Positions 35,108-45,028 of a DNA stretch of 64,000 bases are shown here, piece after piece. The stretch is taken from the NCBI RefSeq assembly GCF_002160985.1, contig NZ_NFLQ01000002.1, positions 124,001 through 188,000 of the forward strand, given 5' to 3'. Numbering within the stretch: the first letter of the stretch is position 1; every line of letters starts with the position of its first letter. Both the position numbers and the translations under genes were made by a program. Under the pieces are notes generated by a model. It was not told where the DNA came from. It did no database searches and was given only the letters and a program-made list of their open reading frames with translations. This DNA comes from Lachnoclostridium sp. An118 (GTDB taxonomy: Bacteria; Bacillota; Clostridia; Lachnospirales; Lachnospiraceae).

Positions 35108-36028
35108 ATGCCAATTCGAGTACAGAATGATCTTCCGGTAAAAGAGATACTGGAGCAGGAGAATATCTTTGTGATGGACGAGCACCGGGCTACCCACCAG
35201 GACATCCGGCCCATCCGCATCGGGCTTCTGAACCTGATGCCGCTGAAGGAGGACACGGAGCTCCAGATCCTGCGCTCTATGTCCAACACGCCCCTTCAGA
35301 TAGATGTGGTGTTCATCAACGTGTCCAGCCACCAGTCCAAGAACACGTCCACCAGCCATCTGAACAAGTTCTATCTGCCTTTTCGGGATGTCAGGGACCA
35401 GAAGTTTGACGGTTTTATCATCACCGGGGCCCCGGTGGAGCAGATGCCCTTTGAGGAGGTGGACTACTGGGAGGAGCTGACGGAGATCATGGAGTGGACA
35501 AAGACCCATGTGACCTCCACCCTCCACCTGTGCTGGGGAGCCCAGGCGGCCCTCTACTACCACTACGGGATAGACAAGGTGCCCCTGGAGAAGAAGCTGT
35601 TCGGCGTCTTCAGACACAGGGTGCTGAACCGCAAGATCCCTCTCGTGAGGGGATTTGACGATGTGTTCCTCGCACCTCACTCCAGGCACACGGATGTGCC
35701 GGCGGACAGGATACGCGCGGACGGCAGGATCACCATCCTGGCTGAGTCGGAGAAGGCGGGAGCTTTCCTCTCCATGGCTCAGGACGGGCGCCAGATCTTT
35801 GTCATGGGCCACCCGGAGTACGACAGGGTCACCCTGGACGGGGAGTACAAGAGGGACCTGGCCAAGGGACTTCCCATTGAGATGCCGGAGAACTACTACC
35901 CGGATGACGATCCCCAGAACAAGCCCCTCCTGACCTGGCGAGCCCACGGCAACAACCTGTACACCAACTGGCTGAATTACTACGTGTACCAGGTGACGCC
36001 CTACAATATGATCGGGACGCCGTTTTAG
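35108..36028 (+). CDS. metA: Homoserine O-acetyltransferase (MetA/MetAS family)
   Basis: A 306-residue enzyme that activates homoserine for methionine synthesis. The nucleophile is C142 in LCWGAQA; the catalytic histidine and glutamate lie in MGHPEYDR. Residue 111 is glutamate (GAPVEQMPFEE). In this family Glu111 gives acetyl-CoA use and Gly111, as in E. coli, gives succinyl-CoA use, so acetyl transfer is predicted. AAAGGAGAG precedes the ATG. The neighbour is the AI-2E-type permease, with no apparent functional link, and no methionine riboswitch was seen. Confidence 0.95.
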   Translation: MPIRVQNDLPVKEILEQENIFVMDEHRATHQDIRPIRIGLLNLMPLKEDTELQILRSMSNTPLQIDVVFINVSSHQSKNTSTSHLNKFYLPFRDVRDQKFDGFIITGAPVEQMPFEEVDYWEELTEIMEWTKTHVTSTLHLCWGAQAALYYHYGIDKVPLEKKLFGVFRHRVLNRKIPLVRGFDDVFLAPHSRHTDVPADRIRADGRITILAESEKAGAFLSMAQDGRQIFVMGHPEYDRVTLDGEYKRDLAKGLPIEMPENYYPDDDPQNKPLLTWRAHGNNLYTNWLNYYVYQVTPYNMIGTPF

Positions 36029-36035
36029 AGCTCGT

Positions 36036-37136
36036 TCATGCAAGCAGCTCGGCCAGGCAAGCCATCAGCCGGTCGTTGTCCTCCGGCAGCATGACGCAGA
36101 AGCGGATGTACTCGCCCTCCAGGCTCTCAAAGGAGGAGCAGTCCCGTATCATCATGCCCCGCCGGATGGCTGCCTCGAAGACCTGGAAGGAGGAGAGCCC
36201 CTCCTTTAAGATACGCACCAGGATGAAGTTGGCGTAAGGGGTGTAGATCCGGGCGTGGCTAAAGCCGGAGAGGATGCCCGTGAGGCGCTCCCTCTCGGAG
36301 CCGATGAGCCGCCGGGTCTTCCCGATGTAGGGGGCGTCCCTCAGCATCAGCTCCCCCGCCAGGGCGGCGATGCTGCTGACGCTCCAGGGGTTCTGGTGGA
36401 TCGCCAGGGACGCAAGGAAGGCCTTGTTCCCGGTGATCCCGTAGCCAAGGCGCAGGCCCGGGGCGGCGAAGAATTTGGACACGCCCCGTATCACCATCAG
36501 GTTGTCAAAGTCCCGGGTGAGAGGGACGGCGGTGATCAGGCCGGGATTGGGGGCGAACTCCACGTAGGTCTCATCCACCATGACGAAGATGCCCCGCGCC
36601 CGGCAGGCGCCCGCCAGGGCCCTGAGCCTCTCCTGGGTGACGGCGGAGGAGGTGGGATTGTTGGGGTTGCACAGGATGACCAGGTCCGCGTCCTCCGGGA
36701 GAAACGCAAGGAGGTCCGGGATGTCCAGCTCAAATCGGTCCTCCTCCTTCAGGTCATAGGCGGTGATCTGGCCACCGGTCAGCTCAAGCTCCCGCTGGTA
36801 CTCCGAGTAGGTGGGGCCGATGACCACCGCGTGGCGGGCCCTGCGCTGGCTGATGAGGAGAGAGATGAGCTCCGTGGAGCCGTTTCCCACAGCAACAAAC
36901 GAGGTGGGAATCTGGCAGTAGTCCGAGATAGCGGCCTTCAGGGAGGCGTAGCCCCGGTCGGGATAGCGGCTGATGACGTCCAGGTTTTCTGCCAGGGCTG
37001 CTTTTACAGAGGGGGACAGGCCCAGGGGATTGACATTTGCCCCGAAGCCGGTGATCTCCTCCTTTTTGATGTGGTAATATTTTTCAATCTGCTCCAGGTC
37101 GCTGCCGTGGAAGGCAGGGCGTTCTGTGTTTTTCAT
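36036..37136 (-). CDS. PLP-dependent class II aminotransferase (HisC/CobD-like)
   Basis: A 366-residue fold type I PLP enzyme. NPNNPTSSAV and the phosphate-site VDETYVEFAP are present, the PLP lysine is in RGVSKFFAAPGLRLGYG at about residues 217-233, and the C-terminal arginine lies in YIRFCVMLP. The N-terminus FHGSDLEQIEKYY with GFGANVNPLG resembles threonine-phosphate decarboxylase CobD more than typical HisC. No cobalamin or histidine genes are nearby, so the exact reaction is open. AGGAGG precedes the ATG. It converges on metA with 7 bp between. Confidence 0.88.
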   Translation of the reverse strand: MKNTERPAFHGSDLEQIEKYYHIKKEEITGFGANVNPLGLSPSVKAALAENLDVISRYPDRGYASLKAAISDYCQIPTSFVAVGNGSTELISLLISQRRARHAVVIGPTYSEYQRELELTGGQITAYDLKEEDRFELDIPDLLAFLPEDADLVILCNPNNPTSSAVTQERLRALAGACRARGIFVMVDETYVEFAPNPGLITAVPLTRDFDNLMVIRGVSKFFAAPGLRLGYGITGNKAFLASLAIHQNPWSVSSIAALAGELMLRDAPYIGKTRRLIGSERERLTGILSGFSHARIYTPYANFILVRILKEGLSSFQVFEAAIRRGMMIRDCSSFESLEGEYIRFCVMLPEDNDRLMACLAELLA

Positions 37137-37208: not shown

Positions 37209-37238
37209 TTGCTATTATGAACACAGTAATGATATAAT
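37209..37238 (+). promoter_or_regulatory. Promoter of the three-gene unknown operon
   Basis: TTGCTA and perfect TATAAT with 18-bp spacing, about 47 bp before the start of the first gene. Confidence 0.65.
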
Positions 37239-37285
37239 CTATTATAGTATGTCTAATAAAGGCGATGCAAGAAGAGGTGGAAGGC

Positions 37286-40200
37286 TTGAAGAATAAAATT
37301 AAGAAATTTTCAAAGGGTGACTTTCAGACAGCAGGCCCGGAGATCGTGTTCGATGAGACCTGTCTGATCCTTACCATCGGTGAGGGGGAAGTGTACCGTG
37401 GAAGTTTTACAATCAGAAGCCAGACAGACGGGTCGATCCGGGGGATCGTGTATCCGTCTTCTTTTCGTATGCGCTGTGTGGAACAGGGCTTTGAGGGGAA
37501 TCCCGTCACGGTGAGGTTTGAGTACGATGGGAGGAATCTGCGCCCCGGACATGTGGAGCAGGGCAAATTCTCGGTTGTCTGCAACGGAGGGGAATACGAG
37601 GTGTCCTTCACCGCCATCATCGAGAAGCCCTACGTCATGACCGCCTACGGGAAGGTCCAGAGCACGGATGATTTCAAGAGGCTGGCTATCAAGGATTTCT
37701 CCGAGGCCCAGCGGCTGTTTCGGTCCCGGGAGTTCTACGAGGTGCTCAAGTACGAGAATCCCAGAATCTTCCATCTCTATGACAATATGCGCAAGTGGGC
37801 TCTGGACGAGCAGGCCATGGAGGAGTTCCTCGTGGGGATCAAGCAGAAGGAGTGTATCTTCCTCACCCTCCAGGGGGAGGGGATGCTCTTTGAGGACCTG
37901 AAGGAGGCCACCAAGGGCAGCTTTACCGTCATCAAGAACACCTGGGGCTTTATGCCTGTGCATATAAGGACAGAGGGGGGCTTTATCACCGTGCCCCGGC
38001 CGGAGATCACCACGGATGACTTCGTGGGAAATGTCTATGAGCTTGAGTTTGTGGTGAACACGGACCACCTCCACGCGGGCCGGAACTTCGGCAAGATCCA
38101 CCTTGTCACCCCCTATGAGACCCTCACATACGATGTGGAGGTACTGCAGAACGGGGAGTACGACGAGAATCGCCGGGAGATCGAGTTCCTGGCAGCCCAG
38201 ATACTGAAGGAGCACATTGCCTGCGAGGCGGGGCGGATCGACCTGAACACATGGACCAACAGCGCTGTGGAGAAGTCCAAGAGGATGCGCCAGTACGCGC
38301 CTCTGGATGACGGACTGCAGCTCTTCCAGGCGCATATATACATAAGAGGGGAGCGGATCGAGGAGGCCAAGTGGATACTGGAAAATTATAACTACAACCG
38401 GTTTGCCATCGGAAAGGACCCGGTCACCAACGCCTACTATCTGTACCTGACCGCCCTTATCAGAAAGAACGGGAACCATGCGGAGAGAGTGCTGGATGAG
38501 ATCGGGAAGACCTACCTGCGGCACCAGGATTCCTGGGAGCTGCTCCTCATGCTGCTGACCCTGGACCCCCAGTACCGGGATCCCTACCGCAGGCTGCGGG
38601 TGCTGGAGCAGCAGTTCTACGGGTATGAGACCAACCAGGTGCTCTTCTACCAGATTGCCTACCAGTGCTTTATGGAGAGGACCAATCTCCTGAAGAAGCT
38701 GGGGAAATTTGAGCTCCATGTGCTGAATTTCGCGGTGAAATACCGGCTTTTGACAAAGGAGCTGGCCCTCTACGCGGCCAACCTGGCCAGTCAGCAGAAG
38801 AGCTATGACGACCTTCTGTTCCACATACTGGAGCAGATCTATGACATGTACAAGGAGCCTATGATCCTGAACACCATCTGCACACTCCTCATCAAGGGAA
38901 ATAAGATGCAGCAGAGATATTTTGTCTGGTATCAGAGGGCGGTGGACGCTGAGCTGAAGATCGCCCAGCTCTACGAGTACTATATGGAGACCATCGAGGA
39001 GGACAAGGTGCGGGAGGCGCTGCCCAGGTCCATTTTCCTGTACTTTATGCACGGAAACAATCTGGACTACAAGAAGGCGGCCCTTCTCTACGCCAACCTG
39101 ATCACCTACGAGCAGTACGCCAGCGACCTGTACATCAGCTACCGGGAGCAGATGGTGGAGTTTGCCTGGGACCAGCTCGTGAAGAGGCATATCAACGAGT
39201 CCCTGAAGATCATCTATAAGAGGTTCTGCACCGAGGAGGAGATGACCGGGGAGAGACTGGAGGCCATGCGGGATATCTGCTACGCCTACGAGGTGACCAC
39301 AAAGGTCAGAGGCCTCAAGTGTGTGCTTGTCATCGAGAAGGACGGCTCCATCAAGCAGAGAGTGCCCTACCGGGAGGAGGGGGCTGTCGTTTACCTGTAC
39401 GACAAGGAAGCCAGGATCATCTGGGAGGGGATGGACGGACGCCATTACACGGATTCCATTGCCTTCGAGACAAGGCGGATGTTCTACGAACCCAGATATC
39501 TGGAAATGTGCAAAAAGTACATGTCCCACATGAACAGCTGGGGCGGTGACGGCGCAAAAGAGGAAGTGACATTCGACAATCTTCATATAAAGGACATCGA
39601 TGAATTCGATGAGAAGGAAGTGTTCCAGCTGTGCAGCAGGAGGATCCGGGAGGACAACTACGAGGAGGATGACTTCCTGCTCTACCTGTGTTTTGAGATG
39701 TTCAAGCGGCAGCAGTACGACAGGGTGACACTGACCTACCTGGCGGGCTTCTACTGCGGCGCCACAAAGGATATGAAGCAGCTGTGGAAGACGGCCAAAG
39801 AATATGGCGTCCAGACCGGGAAGCTGGGGGAGCGGATCATCACCCAGATGCTGTTCTCGGAGGATATGTTTGACGAAGAGGAGATCTTTATCGAGTACTA
39901 TCTGGGAGGAAACGCTTACTTCCGGCTGAAGCAGGCTTATCTGGCCTACGTCTCCAGAGAGTACATGGTGAGAGGGCGCAGGACGGGCCATACCATTTTT
40001 GAGATCATCGTCAACGAGCGCCGCCAGGAGGAGGATCTGGCAGACATATGCAAGATTGCCCTGCTGCGGTACTACTCCGACAGGGAGTACGGCCGCGAGG
40101 TGGAGGGAGTGCTCCACAGTGTGCTTGGAGAGCTCTGCGAGAAGCAGATCATCTTCCCCTTCTACCTGAAGTATCCGGAGAGCTGGCTGCGGGAGGCCCA

Positions 40201-40579
40201 GCTCTACGACAGGACCATGGTGGAGTACCGTGCCTCCAGGGGAGGGAAGGTGCGCATTGTCTATAAGATGCGCCAGGGCGGTGTGGACGACCTGGGCTAT
40301 CAGAGTGAGAGCCTGACTCCCATGTATGAAAATATCTATGTGAAGGATTTTATCCTCTACAAGGGAGACCTGGTACGCTACTATTTCCAGGAGTCCCAGG
40401 GGAAGAGGACCATCAGCCAGGAGGAGCACATCCTGGAGCAGACGAGGGATGTGCCTCCCATCGGCCGGTACGGGAGGCTGAACGCCATGTCATCCATGGG
40501 GCCGGAGGAGAGGAAGGCGGCCATGGAGGAGTATCAGCGGGAGATATATCTGGCTGAGCAGATCTTTGAGGAGTATTAA
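37286..40579 (+). CDS. Very large protein of unknown function (DUF5717-like), beta-rich N-terminus and helical body
   Basis: About 1,097 residues from a TTG start at 37286, preferred over the ATG at 37265 because AGGTGG lies just upstream and the protein then begins MKNKIKKFSKGDF. Residues about 20-300 are beta-rich, like stacked Ig-type sheets, including SFTAIIEKPYVMTAYGKV. From about residue 330 it is strongly helical with aromatic-rich repeats, probably TPR-like. No signal peptide or membrane segment, so likely cytoplasmic. From memory it matches the Lachnospiraceae family DUF5717, not checked. It heads an operon with an actin/Hsp70-like gene (14 bp gap) and a TPR-like gene. Confidence 0.75.
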   Translation: MKNKIKKFSKGDFQTAGPEIVFDETCLILTIGEGEVYRGSFTIRSQTDGSIRGIVYPSSFRMRCVEQGFEGNPVTVRFEYDGRNLRPGHVEQGKFSVVCNGGEYEVSFTAIIEKPYVMTAYGKVQSTDDFKRLAIKDFSEAQRLFRSREFYEVLKYENPRIFHLYDNMRKWALDEQAMEEFLVGIKQKECIFLTLQGEGMLFEDLKEATKGSFTVIKNTWGFMPVHIRTEGGFITVPRPEITTDDFVGNVYELEFVVNTDHLHAGRNFGKIHLVTPYETLTYDVEVLQNGEYDENRREIEFLAAQILKEHIACEAGRIDLNTWTNSAVEKSKRMRQYAPLDDGLQLFQAHIYIRGERIEEAKWILENYNYNRFAIGKDPVTNAYYLYLTALIRKNGNHAERVLDEIGKTYLRHQDSWELLLMLLTLDPQYRDPYRRLRVLEQQFYGYETNQVLFYQIAYQCFMERTNLLKKLGKFELHVLNFAVKYRLLTKELALYAANLASQQKSYDDLLFHILEQIYDMYKEPMILNTICTLLIKGNKMQQRYFVWYQRAVDAELKIAQLYEYYMETIEEDKVREALPRSIFLYFMHGNNLDYKKAALLYANLITYEQYASDLYISYREQMVEFAWDQLVKRHINESLKIIYKRFCTEEEMTGERLEAMRDICYAYEVTTKVRGLKCVLVIEKDGSIKQRVPYREEGAVVYLYDKEARIIWEGMDGRHYTDSIAFETRRMFYEPRYLEMCKKYMSHMNSWGGDGAKEEVTFDNLHIKDIDEFDEKEVFQLCSRRIREDNYEEDDFLLYLCFEMFKRQQYDRVTLTYLAGFYCGATKDMKQLWKTAKEYGVQTGKLGERIITQMLFSEDMFDEEEIFIEYYLGGNAYFRLKQAYLAYVSREYMVRGRRTGHTIFEIIVNERRQEEDLADICKIALLRYYSDREYGREVEGVLHSVLGELCEKQIIFPFYLKYPESWLREAQLYDRTMVEYRASRGGKVRIVYKMRQGGVDDLGYQSESLTPMYENIYVKDFILYKGDLVRYYFQESQGKRTISQEEHILEQTRDVPPIGRYGRLNAMSSMGPEERKAAMEEYQREIYLAEQIFEEY

Positions 40580-40593
40580 GGAGGAATTTTGCT

Positions 40594-41877
40594 GTGAGAG
40601 GCGGAAGCATATTAGGAATCGAACTGAATGACCAGTACTGCCAGATCAGCTTTTACGACGAGGAGAAGAATGAGCCGGAGACGCTGGAGACGGCAGTGGA
40701 CAATTATCAGATCCCGCTGATCCTGGGCTACTACAGAGAACAGTGGGTGTACGGCAGAGAGGCGAAGCGGCTGGCCACGGTGAACGAGGGATGTACGGTG
40801 ACGGACCTGTTTGAGCGGGCCAAGCGCCAGGAAAAGGTGCGGGTGGGAGCCAAGAACCACGATGCGGTGTGGCTGCTGGCCAAATTCTTCCAGCTGGCCC
40901 TGGCCCAGTTCCGGCATATCGAGTATCTGACCTTCTCCGTCCCCTACACGGATATAGACATCAGCAAGATGCTCAAGGGGGTGGGACAGTTCGTGGGCGT
41001 GCCCAAGGAGTCTGTCTACGTGCAGGACTACAAGGAGAGCTTCTGCCACTACATGTTCTACCAGCCCAAGGAGCTGTGGCAGTACGAGGCGGCCCTCTTT
41101 TACTGCGACAGGAATGAGATCCGGGCCTACATGCTGCGGCGCCTGCGGAAGCTGCGGGGCAGGGGAGACGAGCTCTTTGTGGCGGTGGACGAGGTGGCCA
41201 ACGCCCATATGAAGGAGCTGGCGGCGGTCTACCCCGTGCTGAACGTGGACAAGGCGAAGGACGCGGACGAGAGGTTCAAGTCCTTTATCCAGAGCGTGTT
41301 TGACAAGAAGGTGGTCTCCTCTGTCTACCTGACAGGGGAAGGGTTTGAGAACAACTGGTACCCCGCCTCCCTGAAGGTGCTCTGCAATGGCCGCAGGGCT
41401 TTCCTTGGGAACAACCTGTACAGCCGGGGCGCCTGCTACACGGCCTACAGGAAATGCAGGGATTACGAGGACAGCCCCATCTATCTGGACAACACAAAGA
41501 TGACAGACCAGATCTGCCTGCGCATGCGAGTGGGCGGGAAAGAAGGCTGGTATCCCATCGTCCAGTGGGGGTCCCACTGGTATGAGGCGGACGGACAGTG
41601 GGATGTGCTTCTGGAGGACACTTCTGATATCGAGATACATATCGAGTCCCTGGGGAGCGGCGAACTCCAGGCAGAGACGGTCTCTCTGGCCGGCCTTCCG
41701 GAGAGGAAGGACTATGCCCTGCGGCTCACCATAGAGGTCATGTTCCTGGACGAGTATACCTGCAGGATCAGCTTCAGGGACGCGGGCTTCGGGGAGTTTT
41801 TCCCGGCCACGGATTTCCACGTAGAAAAGACGATTCACTTAGGAGGAAGCAATGGGCAGTTTAATTCTCTGTCATAA
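40594..41877 (+). CDS. Actin/Hsp70-fold-like protein of unknown function (DUF5716-like)
   Basis: A 427-residue protein with a GTG start and AAGGAGG 9 bp upstream. The N-terminus ILGIELNDQYCQISFY (residues 6-21) resembles the phosphate-1 loop of Hsp70/actin ATPases, though the usual D-x-G-T is degenerate. VSSVYLTGEGFENNW (about residues 243-257) resembles the adenosine-binding strand, and LGNNLYSRGACYTAY follows like the terminal Gly-Ala helix. A C-terminal extra domain (from about 300) is beta-rich. From memory it matches DUF5716, not checked. It lies between the large protein and the TPR-like gene, overlapping the latter by 26 bp, so a joint complex is likely. Confidence 0.75.
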   Translation: MRGGSILGIELNDQYCQISFYDEEKNEPETLETAVDNYQIPLILGYYREQWVYGREAKRLATVNEGCTVTDLFERAKRQEKVRVGAKNHDAVWLLAKFFQLALAQFRHIEYLTFSVPYTDIDISKMLKGVGQFVGVPKESVYVQDYKESFCHYMFYQPKELWQYEAALFYCDRNEIRAYMLRRLRKLRGRGDELFVAVDEVANAHMKELAAVYPVLNVDKAKDADERFKSFIQSVFDKKVVSSVYLTGEGFENNWYPASLKVLCNGRRAFLGNNLYSRGACYTAYRKCRDYEDSPIYLDNTKMTDQICLRMRVGGKEGWYPIVQWGSHWYEADGQWDVLLEDTSDIEIHIESLGSGELQAETVSLAGLPERKDYALRLTIEVMFLDEYTCRISFRDAGFGEFFPATDFHVEKTIHLGGSNGQFNSLS

Positions 41878-42619
41878 GAAGAAGGCAAAGCATCCATACG
41901 AGATATCCAGGATCCATATGCGGATCTACACCATAGAGGAGCTGTGCTATTATTTCTGCAACAACCTTTATCTTGTGGATTACACCATCATCAACAGGCA
42001 GCTCTGTGATTGGCTGGAGGAGGAGCTGGAGCTCTACGACCTGGCGGACGAGCTGAGGGGCATCCTGGACCAGAACGGGCCGGTGGAGCAGTTCCTGCTG
42101 GCGGTGCTGAGCCACGCCTCCATCTACTCCTCCTCGGAGATCACCCGGATCCACAATGTGCTGGAGCACTTAAAGAACCAGAACGAGGTGGAGCGGGAGA
42201 AGTACAAGGCGGACAATCTTCTGAAGGCGGGGGAGGTAGCTTCGGCAATCCTTGTGTATCAGTCTATCGTGGGCAAGGAGTGGGATGACTCGGTGGGCAG
42301 GGAGTTCTACGGGCAGGTGTACGGATGCCTGGGGTCTGCCTACGGCAGGCTCCTCCTCTACGAGGAGGCGGCCGCCATGTACGAGAAGGGCTTTGGTGTG
42401 TGCCAGGACACAAAGATGCTGAAGGCCTACCTCTACTGCTGTTACAGGTATCTGCCCCAGGAGCAGTACGTGAAGATGCTCTCCAACGAGCCGGTCTACC
42501 TGAGCATCGGCTCCGTGCTGAAGGAGGAAATCCGCAAAGCAGCCGAGAATGTGAAGGTGGACGCCACAGATGAGCAGCTTGGCAGATGGAAAAAGGAATA
42601 CCAGAGAGGAAATATCTGA
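41852..42619 (+). CDS. TPR-like helical-repeat protein, third gene of the unknown operon
   Basis: A 255-residue helical protein starting inside the end of the DUF5716-like gene, with AGGAGGA upstream. Residues about 20-110 hold a conserved-looking start (YTIEELCYYFCNNLYLVDYT). From about 115 two or three TPR-like repeats are visible: ADNLLKAGEVASAILVYQS and GSAYGRLLLYEEAAAMYEKG. TPR proteins often bind chaperones, which fits its ATPase-like partner. Cytoplasmic by lack of signal. Function unknown; the operon ends here. Confidence 0.72.
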   Translation: MGSLILCHKKKAKHPYEISRIHMRIYTIEELCYYFCNNLYLVDYTIINRQLCDWLEEELELYDLADELRGILDQNGPVEQFLLAVLSHASIYSSSEITRIHNVLEHLKNQNEVEREKYKADNLLKAGEVASAILVYQSIVGKEWDDSVGREFYGQVYGCLGSAYGRLLLYEEAAAMYEKGFGVCQDTKMLKAYLYCCYRYLPQEQYVKMLSNEPVYLSIGSVLKEEIRKAAENVKVDATDEQLGRWKKEYQRGNI

Positions 42620-42751
42620 CAGACGGGACACTTATCCATGGTTGACAGGCTGTGGATAAGTGTGTTATTATAACTAGGCAATTTAGTGTGGTAGAGTAAT
42701 CAATTGATAAATTGCTAATATAATAAAGCTGTATACGGGAGGAAATGAGAG

Positions 42752-43594
42752 ATGAAGAAGAGATTGGCACTTATGATGGCACTGACGGTGACAGCGGCAT
42801 CCCTGCTGGCTGGCTGCGGCGGCAGCTCTGACGGGTCCTCGGATGCGGGATCAGACAGCCAGGACACATCCACGGCAGAATTTACGGAAAAGGCAGAGGG
42901 AGATACGTTTACCGTCGGATTTGACCAGGATTTCCCGCCTATGGGATTTGTGGGCGAGGACGGAGAGTACACAGGGTTTGACCTGGAGCTTGCCCAGGCC
43001 GTCTGCGACAAGATGGGATGGGAGTTTGTCCCGGAACCGATCGCCTGGGACGCAAAGGACGCCATGCTTGAGTCCGGAGCCATCGACTGTATCTGGAATG
43101 GATTTACCATCAACGGCAGGGAGGATGACTACACATGGTCCGACCCCTATCTGGACAACAGCCAGGTGTTTGTCGTGAGAGCAGACTCCGGCATTGAGTC
43201 CGCGGAGGACCTGGCCGGGAAGACGGTGGACGTGCAGACAGACTCCTCCGCCCAGGCCGCGCTGGAGGACAACCAGGAGCTTTCCAGCACCTTCGGCAAT
43301 CTCCAGGTGATCGCGGATTACAACACAGGATTCATGGAGCTTGAGTCCGGAGTCGTGGACGCTGTCGCCATGGATATCGTGGTGGCAAGCTACCAGATCG
43401 AGTCCAGGGATGCGGACTTTGTCATCCTGGACGATGTGATATCCACAGAGGAGTACGGTGTGGGCTTCGCAAAGGGCAACGAGGCGGTGAGAGACCAGGT
43501 GCAGACAGCCCTCGAGGAGCTGGCTGCGGACGGGACTATGGCTGAGATTTCCACAAAATGGTTCGGTGAGGACATCACGACCATAGGAAAGTAA
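42752..43594 (+). CDS. Amino acid ABC transporter substrate-binding lipoprotein
   Basis: A 280-residue lipoprotein: signal peptide MKKRLALMMALTVTAASLL, lipobox LLAGC with lipidated C21, an acidic Ser/Asp linker to about residue 50, then a type II periplasmic-binding fold with FTVGFDQDFPPMGFVGED near the start and IDCIWNGFTINGRED. It captures a polar amino acid outside the membrane; the family includes glutamine, arginine and cystine binders and the ligand is not told by sequence. GGGAGG lies 9 bp before the ATG. A TATAAT (42719-42724) upstream has no clear -35. First of a three-gene transporter operon. Confidence 0.94.
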   Translation: MKKRLALMMALTVTAASLLAGCGGSSDGSSDAGSDSQDTSTAEFTEKAEGDTFTVGFDQDFPPMGFVGEDGEYTGFDLELAQAVCDKMGWEFVPEPIAWDAKDAMLESGAIDCIWNGFTINGREDDYTWSDPYLDNSQVFVVRADSGIESAEDLAGKTVDVQTDSSAQAALEDNQELSSTFGNLQVIADYNTGFMELESGVVDAVAMDIVVASYQIESRDADFVILDDVISTEEYGVGFAKGNEAVRDQVQTALEELAADGTMAEISTKWFGEDITTIGK

Positions 43595-43618
43595 AAATGT
43601 AAGAAATATGTACAAAAA

Positions 43619-43645
43619 GGGCTGTCCTTTTGGGCAGCCCGTTTT
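43619..43645 (+). terminator. Partial terminator within the ABC transporter operon
   Basis: GGGCTGTCC, loop TTTT, GGGCAGCCC (9 bp, one G-U pair), then GTTTT. Its weak T run fits partial termination, giving more binding protein than membrane components. Confidence 0.6.
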
Positions 43646-43672
43646 GCCGGACCGGCAGAGAGGAGTTTTGAA

Positions 43673-44323
43673 ATGGAATTTTCGGTTATGCTGGAGCTTC
43701 TGATCCAAGGGACCGCGATGACGGTGGAGATCTTCTTCGTGACACTGGTGCTGTCGCTTCCTTTGGGAATGCTTGTGTGCTTTGGCAGGATGTCAAAGAA
43801 TATCGTCGTCCGCTCGTTTTTTAAATTTTACATATCTGTCATGAGGGGAACCCCCCTGATGCTGCAGCTCATGGTCTTTTATTTTGGCCCCTTCTACCTG
43901 TTTGGGATGCAGATCACGGAAACCTGGAAGCAGCTGGCCTGGATACTTGGCTTTTCCCTGAACTATGCGGCCTACTTTGCGGAGATATACAGAGGCGGGA
44001 TCGAGTCCATGCCCCAGGGGCAGTATGAGGCGGCCAAGATACTTGGGTACAGCAGGTCGCAGACCTTTATGAGGATCATCCTGCCCCAGGTCATCAAGCG
44101 GGTGATGCCCTCCATCACGAACGAGGCCATCACGCTTGTGAAGGACACTTCCCTTGCCTTCACCCTGTCTATCATGGAGCTGTTCAACCAGGCCAAGGCC
44201 CTTGCGGCCCGGGAGACCAACATGATCCCCTACGCCATAGCGGCCCTGATCTACTATGTGTTCTGCCTCCTGGTGGCCTTTGTCATGGAGCAGGCGGAGA
44301 AAAAGATGAATTATTACCGGTAG
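43673..44323 (+). CDS. Amino acid ABC transporter permease
   Basis: A 216-residue permease of the His/Glu/Gln/Arg family with about five membrane segments. The family signature GGIESMPQGQYEAAKILGYS, the EAA loop that docks the ATPase, is at about residues 108-127. GAGGAG lies 7 bp before the ATG. It follows the binding-protein gene with a partial terminator between and precedes the ATPase by 15 bp. Confidence 0.95.
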   Translation: MEFSVMLELLIQGTAMTVEIFFVTLVLSLPLGMLVCFGRMSKNIVVRSFFKFYISVMRGTPLMLQLMVFYFGPFYLFGMQITETWKQLAWILGFSLNYAAYFAEIYRGGIESMPQGQYEAAKILGYSRSQTFMRIILPQVIKRVMPSITNEAITLVKDTSLAFTLSIMELFNQAKALAARETNMIPYAIAALIYYVFCLLVAFVMEQAEKKMNYYR

Positions 44324-44338
44324 GAGAAGGAGGCAGTT

Positions 44339-45028
44339 ATGAGTCTGTTGGAAATTAACAATTTAAAGAAGAGCTTTGACGGGCTGGAGGTGCTGAAGGA
44401 TATATCCCTCCAGGTCAGGCAGGGGGAGGTGCTGGGCATCATCGGTCCCTCCGGGTCAGGAAAGTCCACTCTTTTGCGGTGCGCCACCGGCCTGGAGACG
44501 CCGGACGACGGCGAGATACACTACGAGGGGACCTTCGGGCTTGTCTTCCAGAACTTTAACCTCTTTCCCCACTATTCCGTTATAAAAAATATTACGGACG
44601 CTCCCATCAAGGTCCAGAAGAGGGATAAGGAGGAGGTCTTTGCGGAGGCCAGGGCCCTCCTTGCGAAGATGGGGCTCTCAGACAAGGAGAAAGCCTATCC
44701 CTACCAGCTCTCCGGCGGGCAGCAGCAGAGGATATCCATAGCCAGGGCCCTGGCCATGAACCCGGACATCCTCTTCTTTGACGAGCCCACATCGGCTCTG
44801 GACCCGGAGCTGACCGGGGAGATCCTGAAGGTTATCCGGGACCTGGCCGCGGAGCATATGACCATGGTCATTGTCACCCATGAGATGAATTTTGCCCGGA
44901 ATGTGGCGGACCAGATCATTTTCATGGACAAGGGGGTCATTGCCGAGCAGGGCACTCCGGAGGAGGTTTTTGGTTCTTCTAACGAAAGGATGCAGGAATT
45001 CCTGGGAAAATTAGGGAAAAACTTATAA
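44339..45028 (+). CDS. Amino acid ABC transporter ATP-binding protein
   Basis: A 229-residue ATPase. Walker A GPSGSGKST at about residues 35-43, Q-loop VFQNFNLFPHYS, signature LSGGQQQRISIARAL, Walker B ILFFDEPTSALDPE and the H-loop VIVTHEMNF. Between Walker A and the Q-loop the usual stretch of about 15-20 residues is absent (GEIHYEGTFGLVFQ), a compact form seen in some Clostridia by memory. AAGGAGG precedes the ATG. Last gene of the operon. Confidence 0.95.
   Translation: MSLLEINNLKKSFDGLEVLKDISLQVRQGEVLGIIGPSGSGKSTLLRCATGLETPDDGEIHYEGTFGLVFQNFNLFPHYSVIKNITDAPIKVQKRDKEEVFAEARALLAKMGLSDKEKAYPYQLSGGQQQRISIARALAMNPDILFFDEPTSALDPELTGEILKVIRDLAAEHMTMVIVTHEMNFARNVADQIIFMDKGVIAEQGTPEEVFGSSNERMQEFLGKLGKNL

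What the first reader, a model, noticed from the sequence alone, without database searches (positions are those of the whole stretch)
37209..42619. Undescribed three-gene module: giant beta/helical protein, actin/Hsp70-fold-like protein and TPR-like protein
One promoter and tight spacing (14-bp gap, then a 26-bp overlap) tie together an ~1,100-residue protein, an Hsp70/actin-like protein and a TPR-like protein. The combination resembles a chaperone with a co-chaperone and a large scaffold or client. No enzyme or named system was recognised; I recall only DUF5717 and DUF5716 labels for the first two. All three lack signal peptides, so the system is likely cytoplasmic. Seen: operon and motifs. 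Inference: shared complex.
Basis: partly seen in the sequence, partly recalled or inferred. Interest (0 to 1): 0.78.

Follow-up and report, generated by a model that had tools for sequence, protein, structure and literature searches.

The report
Hsp70 machine stripped of its motor
A three-gene unit in a gut bacterium looks like the leftover, energy-free core of a larger protein-folding machine; nearly all of its sampled relatives carry it, its job is not described in the papers I could search, and working it out would show whether such a machine can stay useful after losing its motor.

Summary
The three genes are real, in the stated order and spacing. They encode DUF5717 (Ig/helical-repeat scaffold), DUF5716 and a TPR-type protein. 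Nearly every genus sampled in the family (Lachnospiraceae, by the named loci) has them: both DUFs in 193 of 200 genomes, all three in 192. DUF5716 has the Hsp70 fold (AlphaFold pLDDT 86.5; best PDB match DnaK, E 6e-19). It is a pseudo-Hsp70: 0 of 36 sequences keep all seven ATPase residues, and the window's copy keeps none. In other families of the order the genes belong to a bigger cluster: DUF5717, lidless Hsp70, GrpE-domain protein, DUF5716, second Hsp70, Hsp70-vWA, TPR. The tree nests the three-gene form among seven-gene loci, so the family apparently lost the motors and exchange factor but kept the dead Hsp70, which also lost about 70 residues of its ATPase domain. I read it as an ATP-independent client-binding scaffold, or a helper of DnaK; the client is unknown. 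Searches found no description in print. A new variant of a known kind with an unusual reductive history.

The parts
37209..37238 (+). promoter-like site, TTGCTA - 18 - TATAAT with TG before the -10
   Evidence: 10 of 12 matches; TATAAT in 6 of 6 and TTGC in 5 of 6 near sequences
37286..40579 (+). DUF5717 scaffold protein, 1,097 aa from TTG (1,104 aa from ATG 37265): two Ig-like domains, two helical-repeat stretches, two further beta domains
   Evidence: Pfam; AlphaFold pLDDT 86.0, pTM 0.48; start codon; Foldseek
40594..41877 (+). DUF5716, pseudo-Hsp70, 427 aa: remnant of the nucleotide-binding domain (about residues 1-290) and substrate-binding beta sandwich (about 296-415), no helical lid
   Evidence: Pfam; AlphaFold pLDDT 86.5, pTM 0.86; Foldseek PDB; motif counts
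41852..42619 (+). short TPR-type protein, 255 aa, with the N-terminal domain shared by the longer (about 387 aa) TPR proteins of the seven-gene cluster
   Evidence: alignment A7; sub-threshold TPR_14
42628..42663 (+). terminator-like hairpin closing the unit
   Evidence: 16 pairs, 5 of them G-C, loop 4

Best explanation
The module is the non-catalytic core of a dedicated Hsp70-type chaperone machine. Shown by sequence and models: a seven-gene cluster elsewhere in the order has three Hsp70-family proteins with intact ATPase residues, a GrpE-domain protein, a TPR protein, the DUF5717 scaffold and a pseudo-Hsp70 (DUF5716) related to one of the intact Hsp70s; in Lachnospiraceae the intact Hsp70s and the GrpE-domain protein are gone from the operon, while the scaffold, the pseudo-Hsp70 and a shortened TPR protein remain under purifying selection. 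Inferred: the three proteins form one cytoplasmic complex in which the Ig/helical scaffold and the TPR protein position the lidless substrate-binding domain of DUF5716, which holds a client peptide or subunit with fast, ATP-independent exchange (as Ssz1 does in the yeast ribosome-associated complex) rather than folding it by ATP cycles. Relatives that carry a coiled-coil, apparently two-TM protein as the next gene hint that the client or site of action is at the membrane.
For: Hsp70 fold; 47 of the 50 PDB matches listed are named as Hsp70/Hsp110/BiP/RAC entries, including Ssz1. 57 of 57 cluster Hsp70s (19 Hsp70a, 21 Hsp70b, 17 Hsp70-vWA) keep seven of seven ATPase residues; 0 of 36 DUF5716 do, with K70 and T199 each 0 of 36. 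The stretch between the phosphate-2 and adenosine motifs is 61 residues (49-67) in 14 compact DUF5716, against 132 (121-141) in 22 expanded ones and 132 in DnaK. Tree: DUF5716 with Hsp70b (support 1.0), compact clade (0.998) among seven-gene loci. All seven genes colinear at 14 of 26 loci outside the family. GrpE-domain protein in 0 of the 22 DUF5716-positive family genomes of the order sample, strong in 64 of 67 DUF5716-positive genomes outside the family. The window genome has one GrpE match, beside its DnaK. All three genes in 192 of 200 family genomes, and the two genomes without either DUF have only weak TPR matches. pN 0.05-0.17 with pS 0.73-0.88 in nine pairs. Coiled-coil TM gene at 16 of 41 loci and in 53 of 120 family genomes.
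Against: No complex was modelled or measured; client binding is untested. DUF5716 could still bind a nucleotide or other ligand: the adenosine-motif glycine (G341 equivalent) is kept in 36 of 36, D8 in 33 and D194 in 30 of 36. Several family genomes have further Hsp70 frames elsewhere that I did not place in the tree, so a cluster-type Hsp70 may survive in some. The coiled-coil TM gene is absent from the window genome, so the membrane link is not general. Losing the ATPases could mean a change of function rather than a retained holding role.
Confidence: 0.5

Rival explanations
1. Co-chaperone of the housekeeping DnaK: the pseudo-Hsp70/TPR/scaffold complex recruits clients and hands them to DnaK and GrpE, which replaced the lost dedicated Hsp70s as the motor.
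For: 28 of 28 genomes tested have a full-scale Hsp70 match (best E 1e-195 or better). Non-hydrolysing Hsp70 relatives that assist an active Hsp70 are known: Ssz1 (passages of PMC7083937); Sse1/Hsp110 structures are among the Foldseek matches.
Against: No HPD (J-domain) tripeptide in the DUF5716, TPR, GrpE-domain or Hsp70a proteins. The compact form has lost the part of the ATPase domain where, from general knowledge, a GrpE-type factor binds. The module is about 60 kb from dnaK on the same contig, so not linked.
Confidence: 0.3
2. A structural, cytoskeleton-like assembly scaffold: an actin/Hsp70-superfamily remnant with Ig/helical scaffolding builds a cell-structure complex, with no chaperone role.
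For: The DUF5717 Ig pair is weakly like domains of ciliary central-pair proteins and the CEP192 SPD-2 domain; coiled-coil TM partner in relatives.
Against: DUF5716 groups with Hsp70 by sequence and structure and keeps the substrate-binding sandwich; its seven-gene relatives carry a GrpE domain.
Confidence: 0.12
3. A conflict (defence) system of the chaperone-centred type.
For: Kaur et al. 2020 describe Firmicute and actinobacterial clusters with HSP70, GrpE, a second HSP70-domain protein and FNIII proteins fused to DnaJ or TPR (passages). Two of the three intact cluster Hsp70s weakly match one PADLOC candidate model, PDC-M61B, over part of the Hsp70 domain.
Against: No PADLOC match for the window's three proteins. 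Present in 192 of 200 family genomes rather than patchy. No GTPase or GAP1 among ten neighbour proteins of expanded loci, two of which had no Pfam match at all.
Confidence: 0.06

Closest known systems
DnaK-GrpE (Hsp70 chaperone and exchange factor)
   Same: Hsp70 fold; the seven-gene cluster carries intact Hsp70s and a GrpE domain
   Different: Window module has no ATPase residues and no GrpE; no lid; no J-protein found; extra Ig/helical scaffold and TPR-type protein
Ssz1 of the yeast ribosome-associated complex (PMC7083937, passages read)
   Same: Lidless Hsp70 relative that does not hydrolyse ATP; Ssz1/RAC chains are among the Foldseek matches
   Different: Ssz1 binds ATP and works with a J-protein (Zuo1) and an active Hsp70 (Ssb); DUF5716 lost more of the ATPase domain, and the three-gene operon has neither partner
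GAP1-N2 GTPase systems, HSP70/GrpE theme (Kaur et al. 2020, PMC7159879, passages read)
   Same: HSP70 + GrpE + second HSP70-type protein + beta-domain/TPR protein in one cluster, in Firmicutes among others
   Different: No GTPase or GAP1 seen here; four Hsp70-type genes, one a pseudo-enzyme that keeps a substrate-binding domain; near-universal in one family
CnuD/CnuCD degenerate Hsp70 of CoCoNuT systems (PMC11090510, passages read)
   Same: Hsp70-like protein with degenerate motifs, helical repeats attached
   Different: CoCoNuTs have McrB-type GTPase and nuclease genes; none seen here
Pfam DUF5716_C (PF18980), DUF5717_N (PF18984), DUF5717 (PF18983)
   Same: Window proteins are clear members
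   Different: Pfam gives no function; the seven-gene context is not in the Pfam lines returned here

Membership tests
Pfam DUF5716_C / DUF5717 | score over the curated cut-off | tested here: met
   347.2 vs 34.7 bits; 693.7 and 329.2 vs 25 bits
Hsp70 superfamily (fold and descent) | nucleotide-binding domain plus substrate-binding beta sandwich; descent from Hsp70 | tested here: met
   (Foldseek E 6e-19 to DnaK, TM about 0.5; grouped with Hsp70b, support 1.0)
Hsp70 chaperone (functional, ATP-driven) | catalytic residues of the phosphate-1, K70, E171 and phosphate-2 motifs | tested here: not met
   0 of 36 DUF5716 keep all seven; window copy keeps none
Hsp70 chaperone (functional, ATP-driven) | helical lid (SBD-alpha) | tested here: not met
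   model ends after the beta sandwich but for one short helix, 420-426
Hsp70 chaperone (functional, ATP-driven) | ATP hydrolysis and client refolding | not testable with these tools
   needs purified protein
Ssz1-type atypical Hsp70 | lidless, non-hydrolysing, partner of a J-protein and an active Hsp70 | tested here: inconclusive
   lidless and without the ATPase residues; no HPD in DUF5716, TPR, GrpE-domain or Hsp70a proteins, but the tripeptide occurs in 7 of 22 Hsp70b, 1 of 19 Hsp70-vWA and 2 of 26 compact-type DUF5717 entries, with no DnaJ Pfam match in the proteins scanned; partners unknown
GAP1-N2 / DO-GTPase conflict systems | GTPase and GAP1 genes in the cluster | tested here: not met
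   none in the seven cluster proteins of L040 or in ten neighbours of expanded loci; whole genomes were not searched for them
TPR proteins | TPR repeats over the curated cut-off | tested here: inconclusive
   window protein sub-threshold; longer homologue strong, TPR_2 E 5e-26; alignable over the N-terminal domain and first repeats
actin-like filament proteins (MreB/ParM) | closest to actin-like rather than Hsp70 structures | tested here: not met
   47 of the 50 PDB matches listed are named Hsp70/Hsp110/BiP/RAC; the other three are two ciliary central-pair chains and a ClpB complex with a cut title; no actin, MreB or ParM entry among the 50 (267 matches had E up to 0.001)
anti-phage defence systems (PADLOC) | match to a PADLOC model | tested here: not met
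   none for the three window proteins at E up to 0.01

The most novel reading that the evidence does not exclude
A whole family of gut bacteria carries an ATP-free 'post-Hsp70' chaperone: a machine with several Hsp70s lost its motors and exchange factor, and its dead Hsp70, with the Ig/helical scaffold and TPR protein, took over a core, lineage-specific job (possibly membrane-linked assembly of one client).
Probability: 0.35. Interest if true: 0.85.

Novelty: new variant of a known kind. Interest (0 to 1): 0.68.

Why it matters
The module is in 192 of 200 sampled genera of a major gut family ('major' is recalled), was not convincingly found outside its order in the samples searched, and has no assigned function in Pfam or NCBIfam. 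Its seven-gene relative is an elaborate bacterial Hsp70 cluster: three Hsp70-type genes with intact ATPase residues, a pseudo-Hsp70, a GrpE-domain protein, a TPR protein and a scaffold. Comparing the two forms makes it testable whether an Hsp70 can keep a cellular role after losing ATP hydrolysis, its exchange factor and part of its ATPase domain.

Tried and rejected
Actin-like filament reading: the listed PDB matches are Hsp70-type. Defence reading: no PADLOC match for the window proteins; two of three intact cluster Hsp70s match part of one candidate model. Wider spread: the class search gave 11 of 291 (10 in the family, 1 weak); the phylum search gave 10 of 398 (5 in the family, 5 weak). 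Two of the five weak phylum loci (L176, L177) and the weak class locus (L178) were opened: none of their ORFs matches a cluster protein at E 0.01, and the long proteins of L176 and L177 look unrelated by eye; the other three weak phylum hits were not opened. Those samples held few genomes of the order's other families. Sequence search of the PDB with DUF5716: best E 0.55. NCBIfam: only one chance-level match (E 0.15). Literature: one irrelevant paper for the DUF names; the other searches gave analogues or nothing relevant; most subscription papers are not in that library. The single-query gene assignment was replaced by family HMMs. My greedy ORF picker replaced the DUF5716 gene of L036 by an antisense ORF, so L036 is missing from the motif counts and tree; the gene was found in that genome. 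A dN/dS ratio could be computed for only 1 of 9 pairs (0.05) because pS is saturated, so pN and pS are quoted. Organism names for the seven-gene genomes could not be obtained.

Full report
1. What is there. The three ORFs are present as described: 37265-40579, 40594-41877 (GTG) and 41852-42619, all on +, 14-bp gap and 26-bp overlap. Pfam puts the first in DUF5717_N/DUF5717 and the second in DUF5716_C with large margins; the third has only a sub-threshold TPR hit. A promoter-like site begins at 37209 and a terminator-like hairpin sits at 42628-42663; the scan finds hardly more sites than shuffles do (5 against 3.3, 6 against 4.1), but TATAAT is kept in 6 of 6 and the upstream TTGC in 5 of 6 near sequences (window and five relatives). 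The codon at 37286 is TTG in 51 and ATG in 2 of the 53 relatives (of 80) in which my pattern found it, with an AGGTG-type site upstream in the 11 printed, so the true start is probably TTG 37286; residues 1-7 of the longer reading have pLDDT below 50.

2. How widespread and how linked. The window genome is close to Claveliimonas monacensis (DUF5716 99% identical). In 80 named loci the three genes are in this order in 78; L094 and L153 run off their contigs. In 200 genomes of the family, one per genus, DUF5717 is in 196, DUF5716 in 195, both in 193. A TPR match better than 1e-25 is found in 193, and all three in 192. The TPR search returns at least a weak hit in all 200 genomes, hence that stricter limit, which I chose after seeing the table. 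G222 and G283 lack both DUFs and have only weak TPR matches. For the 19 best TPR rows the DUF5716 row lies on the same contig within about 110 bp; I did not check the rest row by row. Outside the order I found no convincing member: class sample 11 of 291, 10 of them in the family; phylum sample 10 of 398, 5 in the family and 5 weak; of the six weak loci three were opened and carry no recognisable cluster gene.

3. The bigger cluster. In the order sample, 67 genomes outside the family match PF18980, 55 of them at two or more places. The loci I read show why: a larger cluster of DUF5717, Hsp70a (about 558 aa), a GrpE-domain protein (about 560-645 aa where complete; in L040 GrpE E 3e-13 over residues 517-641), DUF5716 (about 513 aa), Hsp70b (about 546 aa), Hsp70 fused to a vWA domain (about 692 aa) and TPR (about 387 aa). 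All seven are colinear at 14 of 26 loci taken from outside the family (in L038 some ORFs are split). The other 12: four run off contig ends (L046, L053, L055, L056), L059 has no recognised TPR, L043 lacks the last two genes, five hold parts of scattered clusters (L045, L051, L060, L061, L062), and L054 keeps only DUF5717 and DUF5716. In 10 of the 26 DUF5717 appears as two ORFs, an Ig part and a helical part. Hsp70a and Hsp70b of L040 match the Hsp70 profile only to positions 493 and 477 of 599, so they seem to lack the helical lid.

4. DUF5716 is a dead Hsp70. AlphaFold with 36 aligned sequences gives pLDDT 86.5 and pTM 0.86. The best PDB match is DnaK (E 6e-19); 47 of the 50 matches listed are named Hsp70, Hsp110, BiP or RAC/Ssz1, the other three being two ciliary central-pair chains and a ClpB complex with a cut title (TM-scores about 0.4-0.5). 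Seven ATPase positions (D8, T11, K70, E171, D194, T199, D201; E. coli numbering from memory) are all intact in 57 of 57 cluster Hsp70s and in 0 of 36 DUF5716. K70 and T199 are each kept in 0 of 36; the window copy has none of the seven; D8 (33 of 36) and D194 (30 of 36) are mostly kept. The adenosine-motif glycine G341 is kept in 36 of 36, so binding of some ligand is not excluded. The 14 compact sequences (the window, 12 family loci and L068) have also lost about 70 residues between the phosphate-2 and adenosine motifs (61 against 132). From knowledge of Hsp70 this is the region of subdomain IIB, which GrpE contacts; I did not superpose the model on DnaK-GrpE.

5. Direction of change. In a tree of 94 Hsp70-type sequences rooted on the window genome's DnaK, DUF5716 groups with Hsp70b (support 1.0; DUF5716 monophyly 0.894). 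The compact clade (0.998) is drawn as sister to L038, a seven-gene locus, with further seven-gene loci outside that; supports were printed only for the named groups, not for the L038 node. This favours loss of Hsp70a, Hsp70b, Hsp70-vWA and the GrpE-domain protein in the family over later gain elsewhere. The GrpE-domain protein fits: 0 of the 22 DUF5716-positive family genomes in the order sample, strong (E below 1e-30) in 64 of the 67 DUF5716-positive genomes outside (exceptions G016, G167, G186); five more genomes (G006, G048, G069, G131, G141) have it without a PF18980 match. The window genome has only its dnaK-linked GrpE; its Hsp70-profile matches are one full DnaK, a 279-residue partial frame and a short match in a 334-residue frame of MreB size. 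Several other family genomes have additional Hsp70 frames of about 500-595 aa, one of 1,095; I did not place these in the tree, so a cluster-type Hsp70 may survive elsewhere in some of them. L054 (G016) looks like a second, independent reduction: Hsp70-profile matches in that genome are one DnaK, two frames of MreB size and DUF5716 itself. The TPR protein is also shorter in the compact form (median 276 against 387 aa).

6. Scaffold and partners. The DUF5717 model (pLDDT 86.0, pTM 0.48) has Ig-like domains at about 27-131 and 200-295, helical stretches at 301-672 and 743-977, beta domains at 674-738 and 984-1058. PDB matches are weak overall (TM 0.17 or less by query length) and fall mainly in two groups: Ig domains of ciliary central-pair proteins and the CEP192 SPD-2 domain, and helical-repeat chains of the Paf1 and Ski complexes and the spliceosome. 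A coiled-coil protein with two TM helices by eye follows the TPR gene at 15 of 41 loci and an unrecognised ORF in the TPR's place at one more (L059), in compact and expanded loci alike, and is at 7 of the 80 named loci. It is in 53 of 120 family genomes, one of them only weakly, but not in the window genome; four members have no Pfam match over the cut-off. Hsp70a has V-D-x-(L/M)-Y at its end or within the last eight residues in 19 of 19, a candidate TPR-docking tail by analogy with EEVD (recalled). The J-domain tripeptide HPD is absent from the DUF5716, TPR, GrpE-domain and Hsp70a proteins; it occurs in 7 of 22 Hsp70b, 1 of 19 Hsp70-vWA and 2 of 26 compact-type DUF5717 entries, and no DnaJ family matched the proteins scanned.

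7. Function. Purifying selection is strong (pN 0.05-0.17, pS 0.73-0.88 in nine pairs), so the module works. With the ATPase parts gone, an ATP-driven cycle is unlikely. The best model is client binding by the lidless DUF5716 beta domain, positioned by DUF5717 and the TPR protein, without ATP; Ssz1 is the nearest precedent (lidless, binds but does not hydrolyse ATP, low-affinity substrate binding; passages of PMC7083937). The main rival is a co-chaperone role for DnaK. Client, site and phenotype are unknown.

8. Known or new. The Pfam families are known as names only. My searches found no paper on them (one irrelevant hit) or on the cluster. The closest described composition is the HSP70/GrpE theme of GAP1-N2 GTPase systems (PMC7159879, passages); ten neighbour proteins of expanded loci showed no GTPase or GAP1, two of them having no Pfam match, so I do not file it there. 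I file it as a new variant of Hsp70-type systems.

Noticed in passing
window 37265-37286: The listed ATG start is probably wrong; TTG 37286 is the conserved start codon.
   Followed up: yes
L031:6937-8130, L042:4692-5852, L064:10150-11340 and 13 more loci: Unnamed coiled-coil protein with two TM helices by eye, after the TPR gene (in L059 after an unrecognised ORF); no Pfam match over the cut-off in four members; 53 of 120 family genomes.
   Followed up: partly
L054 (G016:C115): A second, apparently independent reduction to DUF5717 + DUF5716 in another family of the order, without a TPR gene alongside.
   Followed up: partly
L068 (G167:C40): The compact three-gene form in a genome assigned to another family of the order; its DUF5716 groups with L032 in the tree. 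Transfer, binning error or taxonomy issue.
   Followed up: no
C-terminus of Hsp70a in 19 loci: Conserved V-D-x-(L/M)-Y at or near the C-terminus, possible docking site for the TPR protein.
   Followed up: no
L039:14741-18596 and nine other loci: DUF5717 is often two ORFs (Ig part and helical part) and fused in others, e.g. L040.
   Followed up: no
G006, G048, G069, G131, G141: Genomes of the order with the GrpE-domain protein but no PF18980 match; a diverged or missing DUF5716.
   Followed up: no
window 35108-37136 and 42752-45028: Flanks are ordinary: homoserine O-succinyltransferase (PF04204), a class I/II aminotransferase on the other strand, and an ABC transporter starting with a family-3 solute-binding protein (for the Pfam names; permease and ATPase by eye).
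   Followed up: no
G000:C55:76496-77317: Frame of 279 residues matching only the C-terminal part of Hsp70; partial gene or remnant.
   Followed up: no
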